From positions 1 through 51,149 of the forward strand of contig CAJBEZ010000094.1 in NCBI GenBank assembly GCA_903952205.1: a stretch of DNA of 51,149 bases, read 5' to 3'. The position numbers were made by a program, and so were the translations under genes. Below are positions 6,050-51,023 of the stretch, piece by piece. The stretch's first letter is position 1. Each line of letters opens with the position of its first letter. Under the pieces are notes generated by a model. It ran no database searches. It was given only the letters and a program-made list of their open reading frames with translations, and was not told the origin of the DNA. This stretch comes from an uncultured Desulfomonile sp. (lineage in GTDB: Bacteria > Desulfobacterota > Desulfomonilia > Desulfomonilales > Desulfomonilaceae).

Positions 6050-6096
6050 CATTTTGACCAGTTTATCTTAATTATCGCCTTTGGAAAGGGGGGGAT

Positions 6097-6270
6097 ATGC
6101 CTAAACCCATTAAAATCACTTACAACGGGGAAACCATGTCCATTCGCAAATGGGCGCAAAAACTAAACATTTCAACAGAAGGGCTAAGTTTCAGACTGAG
6201 AAAAGGATTAGCTCTTCATCAAGCTCTAAAACCTAGAGACATTTACACACCACGAGGGACCGGCAAATGA
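6097..6270 (+). CDS. Small phage HTH protein
   Basis: 57 residues; the pattern SIRKWAQKLNISTEGLSFRL then RKG is the short HTH unit seen in many phage proteins (Trp, then 'LxxRLxKGW'-like). A GGGGGGG run at 6088-6094 is the ribosome site. Its stop overlaps the next start in ATGA. Likely a small DNA-binding early regulator. Confidence 0.6.
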   Translation: MPKPIKITYNGETMSIRKWAQKLNISTEGLSFRLRKGLALHQALKPRDIYTPRGTGK

Positions 6271-16752: not shown

Positions 16753-16950
16753 ACGACATCGCTTAAAACGGGTCTAATTTTAACGTAGGCCGATTTTAAA
16801 TCGAAAACAATAAAATCATACGGGAAAGGTTCAGAAAATGTAACAGCGACGAGATCATCTTGCAATTAATTGATAGCAGAAAATAGATTAAATGCTAACT
16901 TAACTTACACGACACAAAACTAGCTGGCAAAACAGAGGGGGGAAACCAAA

Positions 16951-17559
16951 ATGCAAAACGTAATTTTAACATCAAAACGAGGAAACAACGCCGATCTCCT
17001 AGCGTCCGCCTTTGATCTCTATGCGCCTGATGGCGCTGTTATAGCCGACCTGACTTACGGGAAAGGAAGTTTCTGGAAACGAATCGACAGAGACAAATAT
17101 ACTGCCCTGGTTTCCGACATTAAGCCTGGCCCTGAAATTGACGCTAGAATAGATTTCAGGTCATTACCCTACCGGGACGGTTCAATTGACCTGGTAATGC
17201 TCGATCCGCCCTATTTAAGCGGCGGGGACACGGTTGTAGACCACATTAACAAACAATACTCATGTGACTCAAGGACATCTCACCAGGGCATTGTGAGGCG
17301 CTACGCAGCCGGAATTATCGAATCGGCCAGAGTATTAAAAAAGAGGGGGAAACTTTTCGTAAAATGTCAGGATGAAACCGTTTCCGGCAAGCAACATTTT
17401 AGTCACATTGAACTTATCCGCCTACTAGAAATGCTCGGTTTTAGAATTTTAGACCTATTTGTGCTAACGATCAATGGCACGCCATGTATGCGACATAATT
17501 ACCAAAGGACAGCCAGAAAAAACCATTCATACCTCATTGTGGGTGAATTAAGACACTAA
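16951..17559 (+). CDS. Orphan DNA methyltransferase
   Basis: 202 residues. SAM-binding motif I-like ADLTYGKGSFW and catalytic motif IV LDPPY, with the SAM-fold strand VKCQDE later. The length fits a single-domain phage methylase without its own large target domain. DPPY is typical of N6-adenine or N4-cytosine enzymes. Ribosome site GAGGGGGG. It probably modifies phage DNA against host restriction. Confidence 0.75.
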   Translation: MQNVILTSKRGNNADLLASAFDLYAPDGAVIADLTYGKGSFWKRIDRDKYTALVSDIKPGPEIDARIDFRSLPYRDGSIDLVMLDPPYLSGGDTVVDHINKQYSCDSRTSHQGIVRRYAAGIIESARVLKKRGKLFVKCQDETVSGKQHFSHIELIRLLEMLGFRILDLFVLTINGTPCMRHNYQRTARKNHSYLIVGELRH

Positions 17560-18387: not shown

Positions 18388-18411
18388 ACGCAGAAAGGGG
18401 GGGAAAACAAA

Positions 18412-18708
18412 ATGAGATACAAAACAGAAAAACGACTTTGGATTGGCGGAATATCAATAATTGTTTTGTTTTTTATGTTTTCGATTTGGGGCTTTTTTCA
18501 TACGTCTTCTGGCGAACAAACCATAAAACATTTTTGGTCCGGTTTTTCGGGCCTAGAACGAACAGTGACCTTCTATAATTGTGACGGCAAGGTCATTAAA
18601 TCTTGGGCCGGAAATCTTAATGTTGAAGACCAGGGTGGCACGATAAGGTTTGTCGTTGATGGTAAAACAGTAATTGTGGGCGGGAACTTTGTGGTTGAAG
18701 AGAAATAA
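18412..18708 (+). CDS. Single-span membrane protein
   Basis: 98 residues: basic N-terminus, one membrane segment (about 10-32), then a small beta domain (TVTFYNCDGKVIKSW ... GKTVIVGGNFVVEE). GGGGGGG ribosome site. Similar small membrane proteins occur in many prophages, with no known role. The TAATG stop/start overlap couples it to the next ORF. Confidence 0.6.
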   Translation: MRYKTEKRLWIGGISIIVLFFMFSIWGFFHTSSGEQTIKHFWSGFSGLERTVTFYNCDGKVIKSWAGNLNVEDQGGTIRFVVDGKTVIVGGNFVVEEK

Positions 18709-23477: not shown

Positions 23478-23529
23478 AAGACGGTTTTCCCGTGATTGCG
23501 ACTTTTGAGAGAAATTTGGAGATAACAAA

Positions 23530-26500
23530 TTGAACACCGCAAAAATCTTAATCGTGGATGACCAAATCCATGCGCTCCAAGGCGTGTCAAGAATAATGCA
23601 TGGCGCTGGATACGAGGTGTTGGAGGCAAGCACTGGAATGGATTGCCTAAGGCTGGCTGCGGAACACAAACCTGACTTGATTCTTCTGGATGTAGTTTTA
23701 CCGGACATTGACGGTCGGGAGGTTTGCAAACGCATTAAGTCTGATCCTGAAACCTCGGACATCTATGTAGTCCTTTTTTCGAGTGTTCATATCGAATCAG
23801 ATAGTCAGGCCGAGGGTTTGGAACACGGGGCGGACGGTTACATAGCCAGACCAATACCTAATAGGGAACTGCTTGCTAGAGTCAAGTCCATACTGAGGCT
23901 CAAGTACGCTGAAAACCAGCTACGTCAAAGTGAAGAGCTTTTTCGTGCTATGTTCGAAAATCACTACGCTGTTATGCTCCTGATAGAACCAAAAGGGGGC
24001 AAGATAGTTAATGCGAACCATGCGGCTGAACAATTCTATGGTTACACAGTATCTCAGTTATGCTCGATGTACATCGGTGAGATCAATATCTTGCCTCCAG
24101 AAGAGGTTGAAGCCCTCCGCAGCCTGGCTATAAAGAACCAGCAAAACCACTTTGTTTTCCCCCACAGACTTGCCAGTGGAGAAATTCGAACTGTGGAGGT
24201 TTACGCAGCGCCGATAAAGCAAAACAGGAAAACCGTACTCTTTTCAATCATTCATGACATCACTGATAAGAAAATGGCAGAGGAGGATTTGAAGAACAGT
24301 GAGGAACGCTATCGAACGATCGCCGATTTCAACTATGACTGGGAGTATTGGGTAGACGCTGAAGGCAATTTTCTATACTGCTCGCCCTCTTGCAAACGAG
24401 TAACGGGTTATACAGCGCAAGAGTTCCTTGATGACCCGGACTTGATGAATCGAATTATTCATCCGCATGACCGTAATGAAATGCAGGACCACTTTAATAA
24501 CGTCAGAAAAGTAATGCCCAACACAGTTGATGCGAGGGATTTCCGCATCATCCGACAGGATGGCGAAATACGGTGGATTGGTCATGTCTGTCAACCGGTT
24601 TATGATCAAGAAGGACAGCCTATAGGCCGAAGAGGCAGCAACAGGGATATCACGGAACGGAAGGATGTGGAGGAAAAACTTCGACACAGCGAAGAGCGAT
24701 TTAGAAACTTCCTGAACTCCGCTACAGATCTAGTATTTATAAAAGATCAACACTGCCGATATATGTTTGTGAACAAAGCGAATCAGGAGTTTTTCGGGCT
24801 TTCCGAGCAAGAGATTATTGGAAAGACCGATTTCGAATTGATGCCGCAGGAGGCCGCTTATACATGTCAGCAATCAGATCAGCTTACAAAAGTAACAAAT
24901 GACATAATTGTGACTGAGGAGCAGATAGACAATAATTTCTACGAAATCCGGAAGTTTCCAGTATTGGTAGGACCAGAAGAAGTAGGAATTGGCGCCATTA
25001 TCCGGGACATTACTGAGCAAAGGCGGAATCAAGCGGCTTCGCTGGAGAGCGAAGAGCTTTTCAGAAGGATATTCGAATTCTCCCCGGTTGGCAAATCCAT
25101 GACATCCCCAGACGGTAAACTACTAATGGTAAATAAGGCTTTCGCTGATATGCTGGGTTACACGGTCGAAGAACTCCAGTTGATGGACTTTTCGGACATA
25201 ACCGTTTCGGATGATCTACCAGCCAGTAGGGAGTGTATCCGCAGTCTTGTGACAGGCGAGCGGAATGTTTACCGGATGGAAAAACGATATATCAGTAAGG
25301 ACGGTGTTATTGTATGGGTGGACCTAACCACGACACTGTTCCGAGATCCAAATGGTATTCCGCTATACTTTCTCACTACAGTGCTGGACATTACTTATCG
25401 CAAAGAGGCTGAAGAGGCTCTGCTTCGAAATGAAGAGAAATATCTAAAACTGTTTCAGAATGCGCCTTTGATGTATGTCATCACTAGGAATGAGCAGGGG
25501 ATTCCCTTCATCAGCGACTGCAACAAACTGTTTCTAAATTCCGTCGGTTTCGCTAGACAGGAGGTAATTGGAAAGCCTCTGGCCGACTTTTATTCGCCTG
25601 AGTCCCAGACTCGACTTTTTGATGGTGGTGGCTATGCAAGGGCTCTTGCAGGAGAATACATCATGGGCGAACGACAAGTGTTAACGCGAGACGGCAGACT
25701 CATTCAAACATTTTTGTACACCATGCCTGAAACTGATTTCTCCGGTCATGTGACTGGAACGCGGGCCATGTTTGTAGACATAACAGCCGCACGAAAGGCT
25801 CAGGAAGCGCAAAAACGTCTGGCCGCAGCCATTGATCAGGCTACAGAGGGGGTCATAATCACAGACACAGAGGGGGTTATCCATTACGTCAACCCAGCAA
25901 TGAGCAAAATAACTGGATACAGTGCTGAGGAACTTATAGGTGCTAACCCTAGGATTTTGAAAAGCGGGGAACAGGATTCTATTTTTTACGCTCAGTTATG
26001 GGCCACTATAAAATCGGGTAAGATCTGGTCAGGGCGTTTTACAAACAGGAAGAAAAACGGACAACTATATTATGAGGATGCCACGATTTCACCGGTAAAA
26101 GAGAAATCAGGAGCCATAGTAAACTTCGTTGCGGTCAAGCGTGATATTACGGAACATCTTGAACTTTCAAAACAACTTTTCCAGGCCCAGAAGATGGAAG
26201 CGATAGGGACGCTTGCGGCTGGCGTGGCGCACGATTTCAACAACCTGCTCCAGACGGTATTGGGATATTCGGAGTTAATGCTCCAACGCAAGGAAGAAGG
26301 GGAATCCGACTACGCTAATCTACAGAAAATATATCAGGCGGGAAAGCGGGGGGCTGATCTGGTTAAGAGCTTGATGACTTTCAGCCGAAAGGTTGAGACA
26401 AAGTATGTCCCCATAGATTTGAATCAGGAAATAACCTCTGTTCGCAAACTGTTATCCCGCACAATGCCAAGGACCATAAATATTAACTTGCATCTCAAAG

Positions 26501-27312
26501 AGAACCTGGAATCAATCAAAGCGGACCTATCCCAGATAGGCCAGGTCTTGATGAATCTTGGAGTAAACGCCAGGGACGCAATGCCCGATGGCGGGACGTT
26601 AACGATTGAAACGGCCAACGTGGAATTAGACAAGGCTTATTGCGCCATTCATCCTGAATTATCCCCTGGCGCCTATGTCTTGCTTACTGTTTCGGATACC
26701 GGCCAGGGGATGGACAAAGAAACTCTGTCTCATATATTTGAGCCGTTCTTCACCACTAAAGAGCCGGGGAAAGGGACGGGATTAGGACTTGCGACTGTCT
26801 ATGGCATCGTCAGGCAGCACGGAGGCCAAATTAATTGTTATAGCGAGCCCGGTCTGGGAACCACATTCAAGATTTACCTACCTGCAATTCAGCCAGAACA
26901 GGATCTGCAAGCTCCAACCTTTGAGACCACTATTCCACGCGGAACAGAGACTGTTCTTCTGGTGGATGATGAAGACGATATTAGGGATCTTGGCGCAACA
27001 CTTCTTGGCCGGTTCGGATATAAGGTGATCACTGCCAGTAATGGCAAAAAAGCCTTAGAGATATACCAGAAAGAGGGTGACGGGGTATCACTTGTCATTT
27101 TGGACCTCATCATGCCGGTACTGGATGGAAAGAAATGTCTGGAAGAGATTCTCCGGGTCAACCCCAACGCCAAGGTTGTTGTAGCAAGCGGCTATTCTGA
27201 CGGTGGATCGTCTGATGGCGTCATGGCCGCTGGAGCAAAGGGATTCGTGCAAAAACCATATAATATGAGACAGTTTTTGACTACAATTCGTGAGATACTT
27301 GACAAGAATTAG
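23530..27312 (+). CDS. Hybrid histidine kinase, receiver - six PAS - HK - receiver
   Basis: 1260 residues, TTG start after GGAG. An N-terminal receiver (VDDQ; Asp in LLDVVLPDIDG) is followed by about six PAS domains between 130 and 880, the box AGVAHDFNNLLQ (about 900), an ATPase domain with NLGVNARDAMP, DTGQGMD and GTGLGLATVYGIV, and a second receiver (VDDEDD; ILDLIMPVLDG). Soluble. With a receiver at each end it can take phosphate from the upstream kinase as well as from itself. Confidence 0.9.
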   Translation: MNTAKILIVDDQIHALQGVSRIMHGAGYEVLEASTGMDCLRLAAEHKPDLILLDVVLPDIDGREVCKRIKSDPETSDIYVVLFSSVHIESDSQAEGLEHGADGYIARPIPNRELLARVKSILRLKYAENQLRQSEELFRAMFENHYAVMLLIEPKGGKIVNANHAAEQFYGYTVSQLCSMYIGEINILPPEEVEALRSLAIKNQQNHFVFPHRLASGEIRTVEVYAAPIKQNRKTVLFSIIHDITDKKMAEEDLKNSEERYRTIADFNYDWEYWVDAEGNFLYCSPSCKRVTGYTAQEFLDDPDLMNRIIHPHDRNEMQDHFNNVRKVMPNTVDARDFRIIRQDGEIRWIGHVCQPVYDQEGQPIGRRGSNRDITERKDVEEKLRHSEERFRNFLNSATDLVFIKDQHCRYMFVNKANQEFFGLSEQEIIGKTDFELMPQEAAYTCQQSDQLTKVTNDIIVTEEQIDNNFYEIRKFPVLVGPEEVGIGAIIRDITEQRRNQAASLESEELFRRIFEFSPVGKSMTSPDGKLLMVNKAFADMLGYTVEELQLMDFSDITVSDDLPASRECIRSLVTGERNVYRMEKRYISKDGVIVWVDLTTTLFRDPNGIPLYFLTTVLDITYRKEAEEALLRNEEKYLKLFQNAPLMYVITRNEQGIPFISDCNKLFLNSVGFARQEVIGKPLADFYSPESQTRLFDGGGYARALAGEYIMGERQVLTRDGRLIQTFLYTMPETDFSGHVTGTRAMFVDITAARKAQEAQKRLAAAIDQATEGVIITDTEGVIHYVNPAMSKITGYSAEELIGANPRILKSGEQDSIFYAQLWATIKSGKIWSGRFTNRKKNGQLYYEDATISPVKEKSGAIVNFVAVKRDITEHLELSKQLFQAQKMEAIGTLAAGVAHDFNNLLQTVLGYSELMLQRKEEGESDYANLQKIYQAGKRGADLVKSLMTFSRKVETKYVPIDLNQEITSVRKLLSRTMPRTININLHLKENLESIKADLSQIGQVLMNLGVNARDAMPDGGTLTIETANVELDKAYCAIHPELSPGAYVLLTVSDTGQGMDKETLSHIFEPFFTTKEPGKGTGLGLATVYGIVRQHGGQINCYSEPGLGTTFKIYLPAIQPEQDLQAPTFETTIPRGTETVLLVDDEDDIRDLGATLLGRFGYKVITASNGKKALEIYQKEGDGVSLVILDLIMPVLDGKKCLEEILRVNPNAKVVVASGYSDGGSSDGVMAAGAKGFVQKPYNMRQFLTTIREILDKN

Positions 27313-27498
27313 AGGGAAAGACTTCCATGCAACACCAAGACAATATCAGGGAACGACTGGTAGTTTTGAGATACCTTATCTCTGCGATGTTTGGCATGAG
27401 GGGATATGCAAGAGTTGATTGTAGATTCTGGATAACAAACCAATTTCGCACACAGGAATATTCTTGCATGGTCGCCGGAATGACCTCTGGAGTTAGCA

Positions 27499-29055
27499 AT
27501 GGACTTACTGCGTGAGCTAATCGTTAATGGGGAAGACTGGATTATCCATAGGCTTTGGATTTATACCACCGAGCGTGGCTACGCCAAGTACTCCTCCACC
27601 CTCGAAGAGGCGTGGAGAATATCTATTAGAGGCGTGTCCGGTTGTATTATTAAAGCTTTGGAGATCCACAACAGTCCGCCAGAACTAAGTCCTGACGATC
27701 AATTTGATCAAGATCCTATAGCTGCTTTCGGAGTTATCGAGGCGCAGCGACATCGTGAACGAGGAATTGCCCTAGGGATGTTCTTGGGGCTTCTGAAGTA
27801 TTACCGCCAAACTTATATTGACCTTGTAGACGAGTCCGGATTGAAAACCGAGGATCGCTCTCGCTATCACCTCTTCGTTGAAAGGTGTTTTGACCGCATA
27901 GAAATTGGCGTCAGCGTTGAGTGGGCCTCCGGGACCGGCGAAGAGCGCATACAAGAACTACAGGCGACCAGCCGTTTCCTGACAAATGAAAAGAACAAGT
28001 ACCTAACTCTCTTTGAGAGTGTCGCCAACCCTGTCTTCCTCCTCGACAACCATAACCGGATTGACAATGTTAATCGTGCCGCATCCGAGTTTTTGGGTCG
28101 ATCTTCAATTGCTGGGAGTGAATACTATTGTACGCTGAGGGACAGGAGCCTTGAATATGTTGAACTTGAGGGTGATGATCGGGGCTCCACAGGATGTCTA
28201 AGCGCAGAACTCGCTGAAAAGGTGTTGCCGTGGCTAGAGGCTGATCTTGCCGATTTCACCCACACAGATGATCATGAGCGAGTTATCGAAAAAGTTGTGT
28301 GGGAGAAATCTAGTAATATGCATTTCCTGGTTCATTTCTCTCGTATGAAGGACATCAGTGGGAAATTCGGTGGCACAGTGGTTATAATAGATGATGTGAC
28401 CGACCAACGGATATCAGAAGAGGCGATAAGAGAAAGTGAAAAGCGTTATCGTTTATTATTCAAGAACATGCTTGAGGGATTGGCTTACTGCAAGATGATT
28501 TTTGAAGACGGCAAACCGCAAGATTTTATTTATCTCGATGTCAACGAAGCATTCGAAGAATTGACAGGCTTGAAGAATGTTGTCGGCAAGAAAGTGTCAG
28601 AGGTAATACCGGGTATAAGAGAGTCTAATCCGGAACTCTTTGAGATTTGTGGTGGGGTGTCTTTAACGGGCAATTCGGAAAAGGCTGAACTCTTTTTAGA
28701 TTCCCTGGGAATTTGGTTTTCTCTCTCTGTATATAGCCCAGAAAGAGAATACTTTGTTGCAGTGTTTGACAATGTCACTGTTCGCAAACTGGCCGAGCAG
28801 GAGCAGCAGAAACTTGTTGAGGATCTTCAGAAAGCTCTTTCCGAAGTCAAGAAACTGAGTGGGTTTCTTCCAATTTGCGCTTCCTGCAAGAAAATACGTG
28901 ATGATAAGGGATATTGGAGCGAAGTGGAAAGATACATAGGCGAGCATTCGGATGCCCAATTCAGCCACGGCATCTGTCCGGACTGTATGAGAAAATTATA
29001 CCCAGAGTATGCTGATGAAGTTCTTGGCTGTTTGGAGAAGGACGAAAAAATATAG
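27499..29055 (+). CDS. PAS sensor protein with C-terminal Cys tail
   Basis: 518 residues. An all-helical N-terminal domain (1-165) resembling the globin-like/RsbR-type sensor region is followed by PAS domains (about 170-300, 310-425), a short coiled coil and a tail with LPICASCKKIRDDKGYW ... FSHGICPDCM, a CxxC pair at each end. No kinase, cyclase or receiver is present. The tail is common on deltaproteobacterial PAS proteins and may bind metal or respond to redox. It probably feeds into the two kinases upstream. ATG 27499 has GGAG 8 nt upstream. Confidence 0.8.
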   Translation: MDLLRELIVNGEDWIIHRLWIYTTERGYAKYSSTLEEAWRISIRGVSGCIIKALEIHNSPPELSPDDQFDQDPIAAFGVIEAQRHRERGIALGMFLGLLKYYRQTYIDLVDESGLKTEDRSRYHLFVERCFDRIEIGVSVEWASGTGEERIQELQATSRFLTNEKNKYLTLFESVANPVFLLDNHNRIDNVNRAASEFLGRSSIAGSEYYCTLRDRSLEYVELEGDDRGSTGCLSAELAEKVLPWLEADLADFTHTDDHERVIEKVVWEKSSNMHFLVHFSRMKDISGKFGGTVVIIDDVTDQRISEEAIRESEKRYRLLFKNMLEGLAYCKMIFEDGKPQDFIYLDVNEAFEELTGLKNVVGKKVSEVIPGIRESNPELFEICGGVSLTGNSEKAELFLDSLGIWFSLSVYSPEREYFVAVFDNVTVRKLAEQEQQKLVEDLQKALSEVKKLSGFLPICASCKKIRDDKGYWSEVERYIGEHSDAQFSHGICPDCMRKLYPEYADEVLGCLEKDEKI

Positions 29056-41978: not shown

Positions 41979-44834
41979 ATGAATCAAGAAACTATAGAAA
42001 AAAATATGCAAGACCTTCTCAAGTATAGGTCTCTACTCGATGGCAATGAAAAGAGCGAGGCACAAGTATTCTGCGATAGACTTTTCCAGGCTTTTGGATA
42101 CGCTGGTTATAAGGAGGCTGGTGCAACCCTTGAATTTCGCATACATGCCGAAGACAAGACCACTAAATTCGCTGACCTCTTGTGGGAATCCCGCCTCCTT
42201 CTTGAGATGAAAAGTGGGGAAAAAGATTTACAACAATATTACGGGCAAGTATTTCGTTATTGGATGTATCTCGTTCCGCATAGACCACAATATGTAATTC
42301 TTTGTAATTTTGATGAGTTCTGGATTTACGATCTTAACCTTCAATTGAATGTCCCCTTAGATATTGTCAAACTAGCTGATTTACCTTCTCGATATACCGC
42401 TCTTAATTTTCTGTTTCCTGACAAAAAAGAACCACTGTTCGGCAATAACCGAATTGCAGTTACTAGAGACGCTGCGGACAGAATAGCCAAAATATTTAAT
42501 CTGCTTGTTAGTCGGGGAGAGGATAGGCAACGCTCTCAGCGCTTTATGCTTCAAATTTTAGTTACAATGTTTTCTGAAGATACGGGACTACTGCCCAACG
42601 GACTTTTGTTGGAGCTTCTAAACGACTGTAAAAGAGGACTCAGTTCTTATAATCTCATTGGCGAACTGTTTCGACAGATGGACAATAGCCAGATGGCGCG
42701 CGGCGGTAGGTATCAGGGAGTCCGTTATTTTAATGGGGGACTGTTTAAAACAGTGGACCCAATAGACTTTAATTCAGAAGAACTAGAACTACTTATAGGG
42801 GCAGCAAAAGAGAACTGGAGTATAATCCATCCTGCCATTTTCGGTACCCTCTTCCAGAATAGTATGGACAAGCATGACCGTCACGCTCTTGGCGCTCACT
42901 TTACAAGTGAAGTAGATATTCAGAGAGTAGTGCTACCTACCATCATTGAACCTTGGCGGGAACGAATTGAGCAAACTAATGCCACTAAGGGTTTATTGTC
43001 TCTTCGTAAAGACCTTGAGAATTTTCATGTGCTAGATCCTGCTTGCGGAAGCGGAAATTTCTTATACGTCGCATACAGGGAATTAATAAGGTTAGAATTA
43101 GAATTGCTGACAAAACTTTATAAGATAGCGAGTCGCAAAGACAGAAACAAAATTCGAGCGGCTTCGTTAATAAATATTCGTCAATTTCATGGCATTGACA
43201 CACAGGAATTCGCTGTAGAACTGGCAAAAGTAACATTGATAATTGCCAAAGAATTGGCCTTAAGTGAAGTTAACGATTGGTTCAGTGAGCAAGTTGAACT
43301 TACAATTCCATTTACGACGCTTCCTTTAGACAATCTTGATGAAAATATCCGATGCGATGATGCCCTTTTTTGTGATTGGCCTAAAGTTCAAGCAATAATT
43401 GGTAATCCGCCGTATCAGTCAAAGAACAAAATGCAACAGGAATTTGGACCTGATTATGTCAATAGAGTTCGAGAGCGATTTCCTGATGTTCCAGGGCGTG
43501 CTGATTACTGTGTCTATTGGTTTAGACGAACCCAAGACGAATTACCAGTTAACGGTCGGGCTGGTCTTGTAGGGACTAACACCATTCGTCAGAATTATTC
43601 AAGAGAAGGCGGACTAGATTACATTGTTCAAAATGGTGGAACGATTTACGATGCAGTTTCGACGCAGGTGTGGTCTGGGGATGCGGCTGTATACGTCTCA
43701 ATTGTCAATTGGATAAAAGGGGAGTATGACCACAAAAAGAAACTTGCGACTCAGGTTGGAGATAATTCTGATAGTCCTTGGAAAATTACTGAACTGGACA
43801 AGATTAACTCTAGTTTGGCAGATTCTTTTGATGTTTCTAAGGCCAAGACACTTAAAGTTAACTTAGCTCCAAAGGTATGTTTCCAAGGCCAAACTCATGG
43901 ACGTGATGGTTTTCTTCTTTCCAATGAATTGGCAATATCTTTTCTTCAAGACAAGAATGATTCTAGGGTAGTTCATCCATATTTGATAGCAGACAATCTA
44001 CTTGGAAATTTCTTATCGCAACCATCTCGGTTTGTAATTGACCTGAATCACTGTGACAATATTATTGATGCGATGGCTTACAAGAAGGTTTTTAAACATC
44101 TTGAAGCAAATGTGTTACCAGTTGTAAAAGAAGCCGCTGATAACGAAAGACAGTCACTTGGTAGGGCCGGACCCAGACAGCAACACTTTTCCAGATGGTG
44201 GAAGTTTTGGCGCTCGCGGTCAGAAATGCTGACTAAAATGAACGCCCTATCAAGATACATAGTGTGTGGGCGTGTGACCAGACGACCGATATTTGAATTT
44301 GTTCAACCTTTAATTAGGCCAAACGATTCCCTGCAAGTCTTTGGTTTTGATGATGATTATTCATTTGGAATATTACAGTCTTATATTCATTGGACATGGT
44401 TTACTGCTCGGTGTTCAACTCTAAAAGGGGATTGGAGATATACGTCTGAAACTGTATTTAATTCATTCCCGTGGCCTCAAACTCCTTCTGAAAAACAGAT
44501 TAGGCAAGTAGCAAAAGCCTCTACCCATTTAAGAGACTTGCGGCATGACATTATGACAAAAACCGGTTATACACTCAGACAACTCTACAAAATACTAGAA
44601 TCTCCCGGAAAGAATCCATTGCGAGATTTACAAGATAATCTTGACGATATGGTTCGGAAAGCATACGGGATGACAGAAAATGACGATGTTCTGGAGTATC
44701 TGTTTTGTTTGAACCAATATGTCTCAGATAGAGAAAATAATAATCTTGAAGTCTTGGGACCTGGTTTACCTCCATTTATTAATGACAAATCATCTTTCTT
44801 GTCTGATGACTGTGTGAAGATGATTGAAAGTTAA
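41979..44834 (+). CDS. MmeI-like single-chain restriction-modification enzyme
   Basis: 951 residues, the usual size of type IIL/IIG enzymes. Near residue 65, FADLLWESRLLLEMKSG gives the Asp...Glu-x-Lys nuclease core. A helical connector is followed by a methylase domain with motif I LDPACGSGNFLYVAY (about 352) and motif IV IIGNPPYQSKNK (about 477), an N6-adenine type. The C-terminal third would hold the target recognition domain. It cuts unmodified DNA and methylates its own. It probably defends the lysogen against other phages. Confidence 0.87.
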   Translation: MNQETIEKNMQDLLKYRSLLDGNEKSEAQVFCDRLFQAFGYAGYKEAGATLEFRIHAEDKTTKFADLLWESRLLLEMKSGEKDLQQYYGQVFRYWMYLVPHRPQYVILCNFDEFWIYDLNLQLNVPLDIVKLADLPSRYTALNFLFPDKKEPLFGNNRIAVTRDAADRIAKIFNLLVSRGEDRQRSQRFMLQILVTMFSEDTGLLPNGLLLELLNDCKRGLSSYNLIGELFRQMDNSQMARGGRYQGVRYFNGGLFKTVDPIDFNSEELELLIGAAKENWSIIHPAIFGTLFQNSMDKHDRHALGAHFTSEVDIQRVVLPTIIEPWRERIEQTNATKGLLSLRKDLENFHVLDPACGSGNFLYVAYRELIRLELELLTKLYKIASRKDRNKIRAASLINIRQFHGIDTQEFAVELAKVTLIIAKELALSEVNDWFSEQVELTIPFTTLPLDNLDENIRCDDALFCDWPKVQAIIGNPPYQSKNKMQQEFGPDYVNRVRERFPDVPGRADYCVYWFRRTQDELPVNGRAGLVGTNTIRQNYSREGGLDYIVQNGGTIYDAVSTQVWSGDAAVYVSIVNWIKGEYDHKKKLATQVGDNSDSPWKITELDKINSSLADSFDVSKAKTLKVNLAPKVCFQGQTHGRDGFLLSNELAISFLQDKNDSRVVHPYLIADNLLGNFLSQPSRFVIDLNHCDNIIDAMAYKKVFKHLEANVLPVVKEAADNERQSLGRAGPRQQHFSRWWKFWRSRSEMLTKMNALSRYIVCGRVTRRPIFEFVQPLIRPNDSLQVFGFDDDYSFGILQSYIHWTWFTARCSTLKGDWRYTSETVFNSFPWPQTPSEKQIRQVAKASTHLRDLRHDIMTKTGYTLRQLYKILESPGKNPLRDLQDNLDDMVRKAYGMTENDDVLEYLFCLNQYVSDRENNNLEVLGPGLPPFINDKSSFLSDDCVKMIES

Positions 44835-44940
44835 ACAGAAAGAAAGTGAAAAATAGAGTTGGGGGATAGTAATGTTGGCCCTAGTTTTTGCTGCTTTCAG
44901 CTCAATTATGGTTAGTAATAATGGTATGGGATAGAGCAAA

Positions 44941-45366
44941 ATGGAAATAATTATAGTGTTGATAGCTGGTTTATTTTTTGCGTTGTTGTGTGGCAGTGGA
45001 GCTGGAGGTAAGGGGCGTAGTACATTAGGTTGGGGGCTCATTGGTTTGTTTTTTGGTCCAGTTGCTTTACTGGTTTTTTTGTTGCCAGCGGTTGAGGATA
45101 TCAGGGAGTTTAAGAAATGTCCGTATTGTGCGGAGTTGGTTAGGAATGAGGCAGTAGTTTGTAGGTATTGTGGCCACGACATCTGTAAAGAAGATAACGC
45201 AGCAATGTCAGACGAAACGGACGTGGCTAGTCAGAATATTGATAAAAGTATACCACATGAAACAAGAAGACCGGACTTATACAATATTAAGAAGCATTCG
45301 TGGGGAGGTTGGATAGTATTAGCGGTCTTTATAGTGATGGGTATCGTTTTAATGTTCTGGCGATAA
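44941..45366 (+). CDS. Membrane zinc-ribbon protein
   Basis: 141 residues. N-terminal hydrophobic segments (about 1-20 and 30-53), a zinc ribbon (CPYCAELVRNEAVVCRYCGHD), a polar linker and a C-terminal membrane segment (120-140). Downstream of the RM gene and possibly part of the same block. No enzymatic domain. Confidence 0.6.
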   Translation: MEIIIVLIAGLFFALLCGSGAGGKGRSTLGWGLIGLFFGPVALLVFLLPAVEDIREFKKCPYCAELVRNEAVVCRYCGHDICKEDNAAMSDETDVASQNIDKSIPHETRRPDLYNIKKHSWGGWIVLAVFIVMGIVLMFWR

Positions 45367-45521: not shown

Positions 45522-45812
45522 TTACGCCCTCTTATAAAGCCTCAAAGCCGCCTCAATCGAAGTGTTAATAAGCGATTCGGAAGCTTCGGGAAGTTTCTCT
45601 TTGATCTTCCCGTAGACATATCCAAACTTGGATGTTTCTTTCATGTCCTGAGTTGCCGCCTCTTTGATCGCTTCCAAGGCAACTTTAAGAATTTCTTCCC
45701 CTTCTTGTTTAAAATCTTCGATTAGGGCCGCCATAACAGTCGCAACCAAAGGTGAGCCGACAAACCAACCGATAAGTTTCTGAATCCATTCGATAGTAAT
45801 AGAAAAATTCAT
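45522..45812 (-). CDS. Holin-like late protein
   Basis: 96 residues with an N-terminal hydrophobic segment (IQKLIGWFVGSPLVATVMAA) and an amphipathic C-terminus (KFGYVYGKIKEKLPEASESL...IEAALRLYKRA) in the style of LLH-type phage holins. Ribosome site is a run of eight G. Last gene of the leftward lysis block. The single weak membrane helix leaves doubt. Confidence 0.5.
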   Translation of the reverse strand: MNFSITIEWIQKLIGWFVGSPLVATVMAALIEDFKQEGEEILKVALEAIKEAATQDMKETSKFGYVYGKIKEKLPEASESLINTSIEAALRLYKRA

Positions 45813-45828
45813 GTCCCCCCCCTAAAAA

Positions 45829-46320
45829 TCATTTTGTTTTTTTGATCCGCCTGAAATCCCAAGGCGGAACAGGATCAGGGTCGATCCATAACCCTAATTT
45901 GTTTTCCTTCGCGTGTTCCTGAGCATTTGCGTAATCCGTGTCATTGCGAGCGTATTTGACATAATGCCAGGCGAAACCATTCTTAATAGACGATAATCCG
46001 GCGTCATTTCCACCACAAAATATTCTTGCGATTGTCCGACCATATCTATCAGTGCCGACAACCGAAACATCGACAATTTTTCCAAATATCTGGTCGGCCA
46101 TAAATTGCCTTGATTTGGTTCCAAAAGCCTGCTTTTTCTCTGGAGAGTCAATTCCATAAATACGAATCTTGACCTGCTCATTTGCATTATTTAGACACGT
46201 AACCGTATCACCATCGGCTATACTTACAACTTTACCTTCCCAACAATAGGCGTTGAAGGTAAACATCGACAGAATGGCCGAGCAAATCAAAGCGATGTAA
46301 TGTTGTTTTGTCATTAACAT
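45829..46320 (-). CDS. Secreted thermonuclease (SNase-like)
   Basis: 163 residues: signal peptide (about 1-26), then the SNase barrel with VVSIADGDTVTC, RIYGIDSPEKKQ (catalytic Arg, Asp, Glu), DRYGRTIARI (second Arg) and the NKLGLW closing helix. It degrades DNA or RNA in the periplasm or outside. Uses a normal GGAG ribosome site, unlike its neighbours. It may be a lysogenic-conversion gene or may help at lysis. Confidence 0.85.
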   Translation of the reverse strand: MLMTKQHYIALICSAILSMFTFNAYCWEGKVVSIADGDTVTCLNNANEQVKIRIYGIDSPEKKQAFGTKSRQFMADQIFGKIVDVSVVGTDRYGRTIARIFCGGNDAGLSSIKNGFAWHYVKYARNDTDYANAQEHAKENKLGLWIDPDPVPPWDFRRIKKTK

Positions 46321-46366
46321 TTAAGAAAATTCTCCATTTTTACTTGCAGTCCAGCTAATATTTTCC

Positions 46367-46395
46367 TTGACATGAAATAATAGCTTTACTATTAA
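46367..46395 (+). promoter_or_regulatory. Rightward promoter inside the leftward late block
   Basis: TTGACA (46367-46372), 17 bp, TATTAA (46390-46395). Perfect -35 and spacing, 4 of 6 in the -10. It opposes the late genes and leads to a terminator 50 bp later. Confidence 0.55.
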
Positions 46396-46401
46396 ACATC
46401 T

Positions 46402-46455
46402 CAGCCCGTTACAGGGTTAGGCGAAGAGACTCCCCCCCATCTTCGCCTTTTATTT
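46402..46455 (+). ncRNA. Predicted small RNA with C-rich terminator loop
   Basis: From the predicted start to the end of the U tract is about 54 nt. The terminator is a perfect 9-bp stem (AGGCGAAGA / TCTTCGCCT) followed by TTTATTTT, with the loop GACTCCCCCCCA. No ORF fits. Most adjacent late genes on the other strand have G5-G8 ribosome sites that could pair with the C7 loop. I infer a translational regulator. Confidence 0.5.
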
Positions 46456-46474
46456 TGCCATTCAAAGGGCTTTT

Positions 46475-46981
46475 TTAGTTTTTGTCGCCAATATCTAAAT
46501 ACCTGATTGCGCTTATATCTCGTAAGAACTGGCCTTTTAATTCCTGAACCACTACACCCCTAGATGAACTGGAATGAGTAACTTCCAGAAGCCCGGATTT
46601 TCGACCAGCTATAAAAACCCCAACATGACCGTGCGGTCTGTTTGGCGATTCCTTCCAGGTCCAAAAGACAATATCCATTTCTCCGGCCTGTTTTAAACTC
46701 GTGTCTTTTCCAATCCAGCCCCCTGCCCCATTTCTCATTTGTAAGGCCGTCACCCGTTTAACAGGAATGCCGGATCTTTTGGACGCCAGATAAATATATC
46801 CGCTACAATCAAGACCTTTTGACTCGTTTTCAGACCCTCCCCAAAAATACGCCGGGTGTCGATCAATTATCAACCACAAATTACTTCGGAGGGACTCTGT
46901 GTAATGTGGACCCAAAGCATAACAATTTGAAGCGATAAACAATGTTACACAGGCTGCAAACAATTTCCGCGCAAAATTCAT
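46475..46981 (-). CDS. NlpC/P60-family cell-wall peptidase
   Basis: 168 residues. Signal peptide (about 1-22), then the catalytic Cys in LDCSGYIYLA and the His in PHGHVGVFI, spaced as in NlpC/P60 cysteine peptidases. It would cleave peptidoglycan stem peptides in the periplasm. In this place, with holin-like neighbours, it is a good candidate endolysin exported by its own signal. GGGGGG ribosome site. Confidence 0.8.
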   Translation of the reverse strand: MNFARKLFAACVTLFIASNCYALGPHYTESLRSNLWLIIDRHPAYFWGGSENESKGLDCSGYIYLASKRSGIPVKRVTALQMRNGAGGWIGKDTSLKQAGEMDIVFWTWKESPNRPHGHVGVFIAGRKSGLLEVTHSSSSRGVVVQELKGQFLRDISAIRYLDIGDKN

Positions 46982-47011
46982 TTAGTTTCCCCCCGATGTC
47001 TGTATTATTAA

Positions 47012-47347
47012 TTATCCAAAAGCCATTGTGATAGACAACGCTACAAACAAGGCGGCGTAAAGGATAGCGCTCGCTATGGGATTGGTCGCTATGGTTTCCA
47101 GAGAATTCCTGGGCGTAATCCAGTCAAAAACACACCCTGATAAAATTATCAGCCATATTGAGATTAACGCAATTGGCGTTTTGAGTAATATGTAACGGTA
47201 AAGTCCGTCCGGATCTTCGGTAAAAACCCAGGGACTAATCCATAAACTTGCCGCCAGGACTCCAGTCACAATTGTCCCGATCCAGGCCAAGTGCCAAAAT
47301 TGATGAATTTCAACCGTTTCATCGTTAGGCGTTTTTTCTTGCTCCAT
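47012..47347 (-). CDS. Three-span membrane protein, possible holin
   Basis: 111 residues with three hydrophobic segments (about 18-38, 52-72, 88-109), the topology of a class I holin. N-terminus polar. AGGGGGG ribosome site. It overlaps the next upstream gene by 23 bp. I favour this as the holin over the 96-residue protein, but neither is proven. Confidence 0.55.
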   Translation of the reverse strand: MEQEKTPNDETVEIHQFWHLAWIGTIVTGVLAASLWISPWVFTEDPDGLYRYILLKTPIALISIWLIILSGCVFDWITPRNSLETIATNPIASAILYAALFVALSITMAFG

Positions 47348-47513
47348 TTTCCCCCCTCTGTATTTGTTTAAACATTATGCGTGTTTTTGCCAGCAATACC
47401 CTGATCGCCAAAACTTCAGGACATAGTGAACTTCTTTTTCTTTGCTGAAAACGGTGAACCAATGTTTCAACATCTATTTGTGTTTGTTTTCTGGCCTCTT
47501 CCCAGGTCATCAT
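47325..47513 (-). CDS. Hypothetical 62-residue basic protein
   Basis: Helical and basic (QRKRSSLCPEVLAIRVLLAK), starts at ATG 47513 with CCGGGGGG upstream. Overlaps genes on both sides. Function unknown. Confidence 0.5.
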   Translation of the reverse strand: MMTWEEARKQTQIDVETLVHRFQQRKRSSLCPEVLAIRVLLAKTRIMFKQIQRGENGARKNA

Positions 47514-48061
47514 TTTTTCCCCCCGGAAGCGAAAACTCTCAGGGTTGCTAGCAAATCTTTTGAAATAGCCGTGACCTGGCTTCGTGTCTGTTCCATAGAA
47601 TTAGCGGCGTCGCTACGGGCTCCCTGAGTCTGTTCCTCTATTGCTTCCAGCCGTTTAGAAACTTGTTCTATGGCCCAAATTATCTTGCTCAAATGAAGAC
47701 ACTTGGCGATATCACAGTCTTTATATTTATCTTCCGAGGCTAATCGTTCAACGTCAGCAATGTGTTTCAGATACGATTCATTAAACTCATCACGAATAGC
47801 CGTTAACATGATCACAAGATGGTTAAGGGTTTCCTGTTGAATGGCCTGGGAAACAACTTTCCCCTTTTCAGTCACAAAGGATTCTTTCACAACATTAATG
47901 GTTTCACCCAGGTCAAATATAAACTTTTCAGCGTTGCTCAACCGTTTGCAAGTTAGTCTGTAAAGAATATAAATAATAATTAGGATCGCTATTATTGCGA
48001 CCGTCGCCCAGAATCCCATTGTTTCATGGAGTTGCATTGTGTCTACAATGTTTAACGCCAT
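47510..48061 (-). CDS. Membrane-anchored coiled-coil protein
   Basis: 183 residues: an N-terminal membrane segment (about 16-36, ATVAIIAILIIIYILY) and a long helical, coiled-coil-like remainder. The topology resembles an inner-membrane spanin or a tail-associated protein. CAGGGGGG ribosome site. Confidence 0.55.
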   Translation of the reverse strand: MALNIVDTMQLHETMGFWATVAIIAILIIIYILYRLTCKRLSNAEKFIFDLGETINVVKESFVTEKGKVVSQAIQQETLNHLVIMLTAIRDEFNESYLKHIADVERLASEDKYKDCDIAKCLHLSKIIWAIEQVSKRLEAIEEQTQGARSDAANSMEQTRSQVTAISKDLLATLRVFASGGKK

Positions 48062-48077
48062 TATCCCCCCTGTAACG

Positions 48078-50714
48078 TCAGTATTTGATGATTTTCAAAA
48101 CTACCGCTGATGGTTGAATGTTATTGTGAGCCTGTGATCCGCCGTCTTCAGAAATCGTATGCGTGTGTTCAGTGTTAGCAGCCTCATAAACTCCGGTCGG
48201 CATACCCGTGGCGTCATAAATAGTCTTGGAAGTCTTTAGGGAGGCTGTGGCGGGTCCGGTTTCACCTCCATGATTATGTGTCGGCATTTCGTCGTTTGAC
48301 AAAGTGTGAGTTTCTTCGCCACCGTAATTGCCGACACTCGCCCCCAAAACACCCGTGCCATCACCGCCCGAACCTACCGCCACACGACGCCTAAAATCAG
48401 GTAAATTAAAGGTTGTTGACCCGTTCCCCCCTCCCCAAACTGTTCCAATGACTCCAAACAACCGGCTATATGTTGAACGGCTCACCGCTGAACCGTCGCA
48501 AAGAAGAAAGCCCGTCGGGGCCGAACCGCCTGCAAAGTCCAGCATAACCCCAGAGGGAATAGCGTTTTGAAAAACATAATCGGTCACATAAGGAATAACC
48601 TGATCCGTGCCATAATCGGATAGCCGGTCAGTTACATACTGCGGCATAACCTGAGCCACGTATTCAACAACATGACTGTCCGTGTAATCCTTGCTGTCCT
48701 CAACCGCTGTTGAAGCCCGATCATCTATTTTTTTACTACTCCATGTTTTTCCAGTTTCAGTGACAGAATCATCTATTTCAGCAATAACCGGAATAACCGC
48801 TTTTTGAATAAACGGGCCGGTGAACTTCCCATTAGAATCCGGGGTAAAAGAAAAGAGCCACCTGGCGTTATTTCCCGGATATGACTCACTCAAGTAACCA
48901 TTTATATGATCGCTGGAACTGACAAATAGGCTATTGGCGTATTCCCCCCAAATATTTCTGCCGTTCGCCATGTAAACATGAAGCTGAGTCCTGAACGTCG
49001 AAACAGGCTCCCCAAAAATAAACGGCGGCTCCCCTGTCTCATTATAAGAATAAACCGGAAAACTGTTATCAATGTAGTGAACAGAACTTGAAGACGAAGG
49101 ATAGGTTAAAACGGCATCGCCCCGAATATTTACAACCCCGCTTGATCCAGGTTTACGAATGACATTGATTCGTGTGTCAGAAATTATGTCAAATTGAATT
49201 TCCGACAACCCGTCAAAGGTGGACGGAATAATTACAGGTTGTCTAATAGCGGAAAGGTTTCTGGAATTAATGAACATTCCTTTGGCGTCGGTTTGAACCT
49301 CCCCGACATATCTTGCCGTATAACCCGGCCACGCTTCGGAAAATACATTGCGGTCCGGCAACTTGGTTGACGCGAACAATGTCAGCCTCATGTCAAGTTC
49401 GGTCACATAATTATTTTCAGCCCCAAAGTCCGTGCTTTGCCAGGGCCGACCCGTTGAAGGGTTAACCTCATTAAAATTCCATTCGTCAATTTTCCCGCTA
49501 AAGTATAAATAGTAAACAGAATTTGGCGATATATCGCTTGTGTCTCGCTCAACCTTGGAAGGCAGGGCCTCATTCCATTCGATTCTGGCCTGATCCCGAT
49601 ACATGGTTGCGCCGGTCCCAAGATCATTTAACGATCCGGCGACATAAAACAACCCATAAGATCCGTCGATTTTCCGTAATTTCAACGTGTCTTCATTTTC
49701 AAACTCAACCACGAAATCACTATATTCGCGAAACGTCTCAGGGAACGCCACCGTCCTTGAGATCAGGGAAATATCCAGTTCGCGAACAAAATAAGGGCCG
49801 CCTTCACTGTAAGGCGTGTTATCCGTTTTGATGGACCCGACAAGTCTGGCGTTAATGGTGTCCGAATTAGTCAGATAGCCGTTGATGTCCACGTTTCGAG
49901 ACAAAAAGAGCTTACGTCTAAAGTCCCAGGCGGGGATAGAGGGTTTGTCTCCATTGGCCGGTAATCCCAAAATTGAAAATCGTGCGTCTGAGTTAGCCAG
50001 ATAAACCCAGTATTCTACATCTGGTTCTATTGATTCAACCGATACCGTTTCTGTGTCAGCATCATAAATCAAAACTCCAAGCGAAGGGAAAACCGCAGTG
50101 CTTTTTGAAGCGTCAACAAACTCGCCGCCGGTCCATATCCTACCGGACCCTCCAGGTAAGGGCTCCAGATGTAATTCGGTTTTTGATCCATAAACTAATT
50201 TGGCGTCAGGCGACATTGTTTGCATAAAGCCTGAAGGAAAGTGTCTGTCTGGCTCGTCATCGTAAAGCGATGAATGAGTCGGCGGCATCCATTCTTCGCC
50301 GTTAAACATGGCCAGGACATTTTGCTTTGTTACCCTGTGTGCCTCGCCGATTACTAACCCCGGCTTAGGTAATTTCCCAGCATTGTCAAGGTTCCAATAC
50401 CATTTAATCGGTCGCCATAGACTTTTTTCACTGTCCCAAAAGTAATAATCCCAAACATTTTTGTTTTTTTCGGGAACGTAACGAATAACCCGCCATAACT
50501 CTCCAAATGGCCGGGGAGGGCCGGGCAAGTTGTCAACGGAACCCGCCTGATCCATTATTTCAGGAAACTCATTCCAGATTGACCCGTCCCACCAATAATA
50601 ATATTCAACGTCCCGGACAACCCGTGTGGCCCCGTAACGACAACCCTCTTGGGAAATCCTTCCGAGTTCGCGTCCGCATGTACCGTCCGATAAAAAAGCT
50701 AAATTACCGGCCAA
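48078..50714 (-). CDS. Phage tail fibre with collar domain
   Basis: 878 residues, TTG start (GGGGG upstream). A long beta-rich N-terminal and middle part with repeated 'YDxFxxxRKLFLS'-like segments is followed by a coiled-coil (DRASTAVEDSKDYTDSHV, about 670-730) and a C-terminal tail-collar domain: PSGVMLDFAGGSAPTGFLLCDG...FNLPDFRRRVAVG...THNHGGE. It binds the host surface. No repeat or Ala-rich variable segment typical of diversity-generating systems is obvious at the C-terminus. Confidence 0.85.
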   Translation of the reverse strand: MAGNLAFLSDGTCGRELGRISQEGCRYGATRVVRDVEYYYWWDGSIWNEFPEIMDQAGSVDNLPGPPRPFGELWRVIRYVPEKNKNVWDYYFWDSEKSLWRPIKWYWNLDNAGKLPKPGLVIGEAHRVTKQNVLAMFNGEEWMPPTHSSLYDDEPDRHFPSGFMQTMSPDAKLVYGSKTELHLEPLPGGSGRIWTGGEFVDASKSTAVFPSLGVLIYDADTETVSVESIEPDVEYWVYLANSDARFSILGLPANGDKPSIPAWDFRRKLFLSRNVDINGYLTNSDTINARLVGSIKTDNTPYSEGGPYFVRELDISLISRTVAFPETFREYSDFVVEFENEDTLKLRKIDGSYGLFYVAGSLNDLGTGATMYRDQARIEWNEALPSKVERDTSDISPNSVYYLYFSGKIDEWNFNEVNPSTGRPWQSTDFGAENNYVTELDMRLTLFASTKLPDRNVFSEAWPGYTARYVGEVQTDAKGMFINSRNLSAIRQPVIIPSTFDGLSEIQFDIISDTRINVIRKPGSSGVVNIRGDAVLTYPSSSSSVHYIDNSFPVYSYNETGEPPFIFGEPVSTFRTQLHVYMANGRNIWGEYANSLFVSSSDHINGYLSESYPGNNARWLFSFTPDSNGKFTGPFIQKAVIPVIAEIDDSVTETGKTWSSKKIDDRASTAVEDSKDYTDSHVVEYVAQVMPQYVTDRLSDYGTDQVIPYVTDYVFQNAIPSGVMLDFAGGSAPTGFLLCDGSAVSRSTYSRLFGVIGTVWGGGNGSTTFNLPDFRRRVAVGSGGDGTGVLGASVGNYGGEETHTLSNDEMPTHNHGGETGPATASLKTSKTIYDATGMPTGVYEAANTEHTHTISEDGGSQAHNNIQPSAVVLKIIKY

Positions 50715-50716
50715 GA

Positions 50717-51007
50717 TTAATCCCCCACATAATTAACGCCGTCACCCCCAAGCCCCTTTCTTGGGCCTGGTAAGTCCCTAGCCGTAGGAACAGGCGGCGC
50801 TATACCGCAAGAATGAAGGTAAAAACTCAGTATGTCGATTGCGTCCTGAATACTTTGCCCGTCACCCAGGACCACTTGAGGGCCATTAACTTTCCAGTAA
50901 GCCTGAGCCTTTTCGTCCCATGCAAGAGGTTCATCCGCTGAATCATTCTCGGCATAGCCATAATTAAGCCTCTCAGCTTCGGCTATTAGCTTGTCTATAT
51001 TACTCAT
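50717..51007 (-). CDS. Hypothetical late protein, 96 residues
   Basis: Acidic N-terminal half, Pro/Gly-rich C-terminus; the central GDGQSIQDAIDILSFYLHSC looks helical. AAGGGGG ribosome site. Directly before the tail fibre, so probably a tail or baseplate accessory protein. Confidence 0.5.
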   Translation of the reverse strand: MSNIDKLIAEAERLNYGYAENDSADEPLAWDEKAQAYWKVNGPQVVLGDGQSIQDAIDILSFYLHSCGIAPPVPTARDLPGPRKGLGGDGVNYVGD

Positions 51008-51023
51008 TGGTAAGCCCCCTTAC

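What the first reader, a model, noticed from the sequence alone, without database searches (positions are those of the whole stretch)
46367..46455. C7-loop small RNA opposite late genes with poly-G ribosome sites
A perfect -35, 17-bp spacer and acceptable -10 lead to a 54-nt RNA ending in a strong terminator whose loop holds seven C. The late genes at 45812, 46981, 47347, 47513, 48061, 50714 and 51007 have G5-G8 ribosome sites; several early genes (6097, 16951, 18412) do too. One RNA could hold back many genes. The thermonuclease at 46320 uses GGAG and would escape.
Basis: partly seen in the sequence, partly recalled or inferred. Interest (0 to 1): 0.72.

Follow-up and report, generated by a model that had tools for sequence, protein, structure and literature searches.

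The report
C-loop RNA candidate among poly-G genes
A virus integrated in a bacterium, probably of the Desulfomonile group, carries what looks like a gene for a very short RNA whose loop of seven C could stick to the runs of G with which most of the virus's late genes start, which would be a simple way to hold back many genes at once; nothing yet shows that the RNA is made or does this.

Summary
The sequence facts hold. On the + strand, between late genes nlpC and SNase, lies TTGACA-17-TATTAA, then about 54 nt ending in a 9-bp terminator with loop GACTCCCCCCCA and a T tail. The -10 is weak (4 of 6, no final T). By a strict rule no such promoter+terminator pair appears in 40 shuffles or 704 kb of host DNA. 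Seven of 8 late starts have G5-G8 ribosome sites, against 22 of 528 host ORFs. The loop could pair with G6-G8 sites (-16 to -20 kcal/mol) but hardly with SNase's GGAG (-5.6). New: the host genus carries its own repeated C5-C7-loop terminators, mostly downstream of HU-type genes. They show no homology to the phage RNA, but could act on the same sites. Best reading: a RepG/6C-like C-loop sRNA candidate; transcription and targets untested.

The parts
46367..46372 (+). -35 TTGACA of the proposed RNA gene
46378..46394 (.). perfect dyad TAATAGCTTTACTATTA overlapping spacer and -10, possible operator
   Evidence: only perfect copy in the window; two further places with 2 mismatches; dyads with arms >=6 occur about 3 per kb, so weak
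46390..46395 (+). -10 TATTAA (4 of 6, lacks the final T)
46402..46455 (+). proposed small RNA of about 54 nt: 5' hairpin GCCCGUUACAGGGU, then terminator with C7 loop
   Evidence: start inferred from promoter spacing
46419..46448 (+). terminator hairpin, 9-bp stem, 12-nt loop, followed by a T tail
46432..46438 (+). C7 in the terminator loop, proposed pairing site (G7 on the late mRNA strand)
45829..46320 (-). SNase-like nuclease, GGAG ribosome site, no G run; absent between nlpC and the next gene in sister pieces
45815..45822 (-). G8 ribosome site of 45522-45812 (small late gene)
   Evidence: G6 in C67 and C116
46475..46981 (-). NlpC/P60 late gene with G6 ribosome site at 46989-46994
47351..47356 (-). 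G6 ribosome site of 47012-47347
   Evidence: G6 in C110
47519..47524 (-). G6 ribosome site of 47325-47513
   Evidence: GGAGG in C110
48065..48070 (-). G6 ribosome site of 47510-48061
50722..50726 (-). G5 ribosome site of tail collar/fibre gene 48078-50714 (TTG start)
51015..51019 (-). G5 ribosome site of 50717-51007
6088..6094 (+). G7 ribosome site of early ORF 6097-6270
16937..16942 (+). G6 ribosome site of 16951-17559 (DNA methyltransferase by PHROG match)
18397..18403 (+). G7 ribosome site of 18412-18708

Best explanation
The element is a small RNA gene on the + strand of a prophage late region, in a stretch that it shares with an SNase gene and that sister copies lack. Its RNA is two hairpins, the second being its own terminator with seven C in a 12-nt loop. 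The proposed action: the C loop pairs with the G6-G8 ribosome sites of phage genes transcribed from the other strand and elsewhere, keeps ribosomes off and damps them, in the lysogen or early in induction, while SNase (GGAG) escapes. Shown: sequence, predicted fold, the G-run bias and the pairing potential. Inferred: transcription, termination, loop-to-ribosome-site pairing in the cell, direction of the effect, timing.
For: Perfect -35, spacing and terminator found together once in the window and 0 times in 40 shuffles. Fold z -4.3. The C7 run is the only C or G run of 7 or more in the window that is not a ribosome site. G5+ sites: 7 of 8 late starts against 22 of 528 host ORFs of at least 100 codons. 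Loop duplex -16.1 to -20.1 for eight G6-G8 leaders, -12.2 to -14.2 for three G5 leaders, -5.6 to -11.4 for seven leaders without a G5 run. Precedents: RepG terminator loop on a G repeat, 6C.
Against: Weak -10, missed by the promoter scan. Sister pieces keep G6 sites and no C-loop RNA was found beside them. No copy of the element in own or genus genomes (only short weak matches of 16-28 bases), in phage records, or of its core in IMG/VR, so conservation of the loop cannot be tested. Co-folding, which cannot show loop kissing, gives small gains (0 to -10.3 kcal/mol, SNase -2.5). The RNA is also a perfect antisense of the nlpC-SNase gap.
Confidence: 0.36

Rival explanations
1. The + strand RNA is a cis antisense RNA. 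Its 54 nt are fully complementary to the late mRNA between nlpC and SNase, and its C7 loop faces the G7 loop of the mirror hairpin on that mRNA. Pairing leads to cleavage or blocks read-through, so that SNase is uncoupled from the rest of the late operon. G-run ribosome sites are an unrelated habit of this phage lineage.
For: Complementarity is certain from position, and the other strand folds into a similar hairpin. The RNA and SNase sit together in the stretch that sister pieces lack. Phage antisense RNAs such as OOP and aQ are known (passages).
Against: It does not cover the SNase start region (46320-46340). It gives no reason for a C7 loop rather than any loop.
Confidence: 0.22
2. It is an ordinary + strand terminator in a gene insert, with a chance -35. 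No small RNA is made, and G-run ribosome sites simply pair with the CCUCC end of 16S rRNA through one G-U pair.
For: Weak -10. G-run leaders pair well with the assumed anti-SD (-9.7 to -17.8). Sister pieces have G6 sites and no such RNA was found there. The stem itself is common: 14 IMG/VR stretches carry it before a T tail.
Against: No convincing + strand gene ends close upstream: the nearest listed + ORFs end at 45366 and 45725 (mechanical list), and a terminator-like site lies at 45058-45073 after the MmeI gene. The promoter/terminator pair is more than shuffles give.
Confidence: 0.28
3. The G-run sites answer to the host's own C-loop RNAs (the repeated element downstream of HU-type genes). 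The phage copy is a mimic, or the G7 loop on the late mRNA strand is a decoy that soaks them up.
For: Thirteen model matches in 6 of 7 genus genomes; C5-C7 runs in the ten aligned copies; 8 of 11 copies examined follow an HU-type ORF by 82-153 nt. The sister prophages sit in the same host. GGGGGG-N3-8-ATG occurs 127 times in the host genome against 59 for the reversed pattern, overlapping placements counted.
Against: No homology between host element and phage RNA beyond the C run (2.9 bits). Two genus copies (G004, one of G006) do not form the stem in the minimum-energy fold. The host elements could be mere terminators; whether free RNAs are made is unknown.
Confidence: 0.14

Closest known systems
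RepG of Helicobacter pylori
   Same: C/U-rich terminator loop pairing with a run of G in an mRNA leader; intergenic RNA with at least two stem-loops (passages of PMC8295292).
   Different: RepG is chromosomal; the studied target is one G repeat in the leader of a bicistronic mRNA, not the ribosome site of each gene; 6G did not respond, 7-12G did. Here C7 in a phage and G5-G8 at ribosome sites.
6C RNA (B11 of mycobacteria)
   Same: Stem-loops with six conserved C; [quoted passage not shown]
   Different: 6C has two C-loop hairpins; here one. No 6C match in Rfam searches.
alpha-r14 / cuckoo RNAs
   Same: Loops carry an anti-ribosome-site motif while stems vary (passage, PMC10746234).
   Different: Three hairpins with CCUCCUCCC; here one C7 loop.
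Phage antisense RNAs OOP, aQ
   Same: Short phage RNA opposite phage genes (passages, PMC12197685).
   Different: There the described targets are single genes (cII, Q); a C7 loop could reach many.

Membership tests
6C RNA (RF01066, number recalled) | two hairpins, each with a run of C, and a match to the Rfam model | tested here: not met
   one C loop only; no Rfam match at gathering over the window; at E<=10 no 6C match and nothing over the element on L134
RepG | terminator loop rich in C/U able to pair with a G run in a leader | tested here: met
   loop GACUCCCCCCCA, duplex -16 to -20 kcal/mol with G6-G8 leaders; layout only, not descent
RepG | regulation of a G-run leader in the cell | not testable with these tools
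   needs expression data
alpha-r14 / cuckoo RNA | CCUCCUCCC motif in several hairpin loops | tested here: not met
   motif absent, loop is GACUCCCCCCCA
C-loop element of the host genus (model R1) | sequence and stem match to the model | tested here: not met
   2.9 bits, C run only, filters off; no match at that place with default filters
sigma-70 transcribed sRNA gene with intrinsic terminator | -35, spacing, -10 and terminator | tested here: inconclusive
   -35 and terminator good, -10 4 of 6 without final T
cis antisense RNA | full complementarity to an mRNA made from the other strand | tested here: inconclusive
   complementary by position; co-expression unknown

The most novel reading that the evidence does not exclude
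A prophage marks most of its late genes with runs of G as ribosome sites and carries one short RNA whose C7 terminator loop covers them all, so one RNA silences a whole gene set. Its host genus has an unrelated family of C-loop RNAs after HU-type genes that can read the same mark, making G-run ribosome sites a shared control code between host and phage.
Probability: 0.15. Interest if true: 0.78.

Novelty: new variant of a known kind. Interest (0 to 1): 0.5.

Why it matters
If true, it would be a phage RNA that works as a blanket switch on many of its own genes through one simple motif, a RepG-like principle moved to ribosome sites. The host C-loop family, found here by its copies in six genomes of one genus, would be a second, independent RNA of the same principle, so the idea could be tested with plain reporters.

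Tried and rejected
Homology of the phage RNA to the host C-loop element: rejected (2.9 bits), although the phage RNA and the fuller host copies both have a small 5' hairpin with UACAGG and a C-run terminator loop. Operator shared with other phage promoters: the dyad has no second perfect copy in the window. Same stem elsewhere: in five family genomes the stem pattern occurs only at the window site and once in G391 with another loop; 14 IMG/VR stretches have the stem before a T tail and none of the 14 loops has a C run. So the stem is common and the C loop is not part of it. Close phage relatives: none in phage records for the RNA region, NlpC or the small gene; the plasmid search with NlpC gave 2 weak matches. 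IMG/VR scans with the SNase, fibre and 47012-47347 proteins found no relative; NlpC alone gave one 36% relative. The NlpC alignment gave 6 genome loci and 5 IMG/VR loci at 36-50% identity; the C38 copy was left out of that alignment. C-loop hairpins (stem of at least 7 pairs, C5+ in the loop, 5 T in 9) were sought in 12 pieces (L053-L058, L129, L137, L089-L092; none found); L083-L088 and L093 were not scanned for them. Host-model matches outside the genus: 19 matches in 18 of 141 genomes at E<=0.1. Read at their right places, one (L168, G029) is a terminator with C6 in its loop, the other 18 have no C5+ loop. One search had printed some of them at a wrong offset. 16S rRNA was not found in the assembly, so the host anti-SD is assumed.

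The first host ribosome-site count had a slicing error at contig edges; one search repeats it on 59 loci and is the one used. The host rule picks the best start per ORF, while the late starts were read by eye, so the Fisher value (5e-9) is only indicative. In one search the 47012-47347 homologue was read in a wrong frame; one search mends that. One search scanned a meaningless 20-residue stretch and is not used.

Full report
What was checked. The window is the whole of contig C94 (51,149 bases) of an unnamed 4.78-Mb genome in 120 contigs. Six named genome loci relate to its NlpC protein: three Desulfomonile MAGs, two labelled Deltaproteobacteria bacterium and one labelled bacterium, so a Desulfomonile-type host is likely. 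The window holds two integrase genes, a RecT-like annealing protein and a DnaB-like helicase. Tail collar/fibre, NlpC/P60 and SNase genes lie on the - strand at its right end. I read it as a prophage with its late genes running leftward from 51007 to 45522.

The + strand reads TTGACA (46367-46372), 17 bases, TATTAA (46390-46395), then a 5' hairpin GCCC-GUUACA-GGGU and a terminator, stem AGGCGAAGA/TCTTCGCCT, loop GACTCCCCCCCA, tail TTTATTTTG. The weak point is the -10: 4 of 6 letters, without the final T; the tool's scan, which requires that T, does not list it. A perfect -35 with a -10 of at least 4 of 6, followed within 90 nt by a strict terminator, occurs once in the window, in none of 40 shuffles and nowhere in 704,159 bases of host DNA (59 loci). 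With the laxer rule of 10 of 12 the window has two, all 40 shuffles together one, and the host none. The rules were set after seeing the site.

Ribosome sites. Of 8 late starts, 7 have a run of 5 to 8 G. A further - strand ORF, 44790-45182, has no G run and no family match, and was left out. In the host sample 22 of 528 ORFs of at least 100 codons have such a run, 5 of them with 6 or more. In the first 15 kb of contig C60, which codes for terminase, portal, head and sheath proteins and may be the upstream part of this prophage (no end overlap found), 4 of 14 do. Genome-wide, GGGGGG-N3-8-ATG occurs 127 times against 59 for the reversed pattern, overlapping placements counted, so such sites are not confined to the phage. 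Still, the G-run habit is a strong trait of these late genes.

Pairing. The 12-nt loop gives -16.1 to -20.1 kcal/mol with the eight G6-G8 leaders tested and -12.2 to -14.2 with three G5 leaders. With the seven leaders lacking a G5 run it gives -5.6 to -11.4, SNase -5.6. This follows from C against G and is a possibility, not a proof. With an assumed CCUCC anti-SD the G-run leaders give -9.7 to -17.8, so they are also good ribosome sites. Co-folding without kissing gives only 0 to -10.3, and -2.5 for SNase.

Sister prophages. The same genome has two NlpC copies of 71% identity, C67 and C116. There NlpC is followed after 20 and 25 bases by the homologue of 45522-45812 (42 and 44 of 93 residues identical), with no SNase between. 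Both genes have G6 in both copies; the C116 NlpC starts with TTG. C110 carries the homologue of the 47012-47347 gene (51 of 76 residues identical over the part present) with G6, and that of 47325-47513 (40 of 60) with GGAGG. So 5 of 6 corresponding sites keep G6. C110 also holds part of a 47510-48061 homologue whose start does not correspond and was not counted. My scan found no terminator-like hairpin with a C5+ loop in C67, C116, the first 20 kb of C110 or the first 20 kb of C60. It is not final, because the pieces are cut by contig ends and an RNA acts in trans. It suggests that RNA and SNase form one block, gained here or lost in the sisters. In eight more distant pieces (L055-L058, L089-L092) the same scan found none.

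Host C-loop family. Among 39 strict terminators in the host sample 3 have a C5+ loop, all of one repeated type: core CCCTTAGCCCTGGCATCCCCCCGCTGGGGTTTTTC. A DNA search of 99 genomes found it in 5 genomes of the genus, plus one 19-base match elsewhere. The ten aligned copies have C5 to C7. A covariance model (R1, four sequences) gave 13 matches in 6 of 7 genomes of the genus, G003 having none; the weakest are marginal (E 0.003 and 0.016), and those two do not form the stem in the minimum-energy fold. Of 11 copies examined, 8 lie 82-153 nt after an HU-type ORF, measured to the start of the matched stretch; one such ORF was tested and matches PF00216, the others were judged by resemblance. At E<=10 the only Rfam match over a copy is a sub-threshold one to anti-hemB on the C23 copy (17.5 bits, gathering 49.5, E 4.7, five copies scanned). 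The window RNA scores 2.9 bits, the C run alone: no homology shown. Outside the genus 18 of 141 genomes have 19 matches; one (G029) is a terminator with C6 in its loop, the other 18 have no C5+ loop.

How it most likely works. A small RNA gene sharing a stretch with an SNase gene; the C7 loop pairs with G-run ribosome sites of phage genes and damps them. Shown: anatomy, G-run bias, pairing potential. Inferred: transcription, action, timing. Rivals: cis antisense on the nlpC-SNase gap; a plain terminator with a chance -35; host C-loop RNAs as the true partner.

Known systems. [quoted passage not shown] 7-12G respond, 6G does not (passages of PMC8295292). 6C forms two stem-loops with six conserved C and is cited as binding targets via C-rich loops (review passages of PMC8628891; the primary paper was not held). 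Alpha-r14 RNAs carry CCUCCUCCC loops with varying stems (passage of PMC10746234). Phage sRNAs are reviewed in PMC12197685 (12 of 16 passages shown); none of those describes a C-loop RNA acting on a phage's own G-run sites. Searches for such a report (2 papers; 18 papers, 10 listed) showed nothing that says so in title or start of abstract; of these I looked into PMC12197685 only. A search for Desulfomonile with small RNA gave no paper.

Noticed in passing
G000 contigs C33, C100, C113, C23, C60, C18 and C28 (L144, L150, L152, L153, L155, L154; C28 not fetched at that place), and genomes G005, G001, G006, G002, G004 of the same genus: Repeated terminator element with a C5-C7 loop, mostly 82-153 nt downstream of HU-type genes; four HU copies in G000 (C33, C100, C113, C18) also share a TTGACATGTGTCAA palindrome. 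Possible RNA family of this genus; no Rfam match at gathering strength was seen.
   Followed up: partly
window 45829-46475: SNase gene plus C-loop RNA lie between nlpC and the next late gene; sister prophage pieces C67 and C116 lack both.
   Followed up: yes
L137 (contig C60, 1-15000): Terminase, portal, protease, major head protein and sheath genes on the - strand; may be the upstream half of the window's prophage, but no end overlap was found.
   Followed up: partly
window 21090-29055: Sensor-kinase-like genes inside the phage contig: 23530-27312 has PAS, HisKA, HATPase and response-regulator domains; 21090-23477 and 27499-29055 share a PHROG (phrog_5982).
   Followed up: no
window 41979-44834: MmeI-type restriction-modification protein next to the convergent end of the late genes.
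   Followed up: no
window 45815-45822 vs C67, C116: The G run of the small late gene is G8 in the window and G6 in both sister copies, so run length changes between copies.
   Followed up: partly
L168 (G029): A terminator with C6 in its loop in another family of the same phylum, found by the host model (E 0.0097).
   Followed up: no
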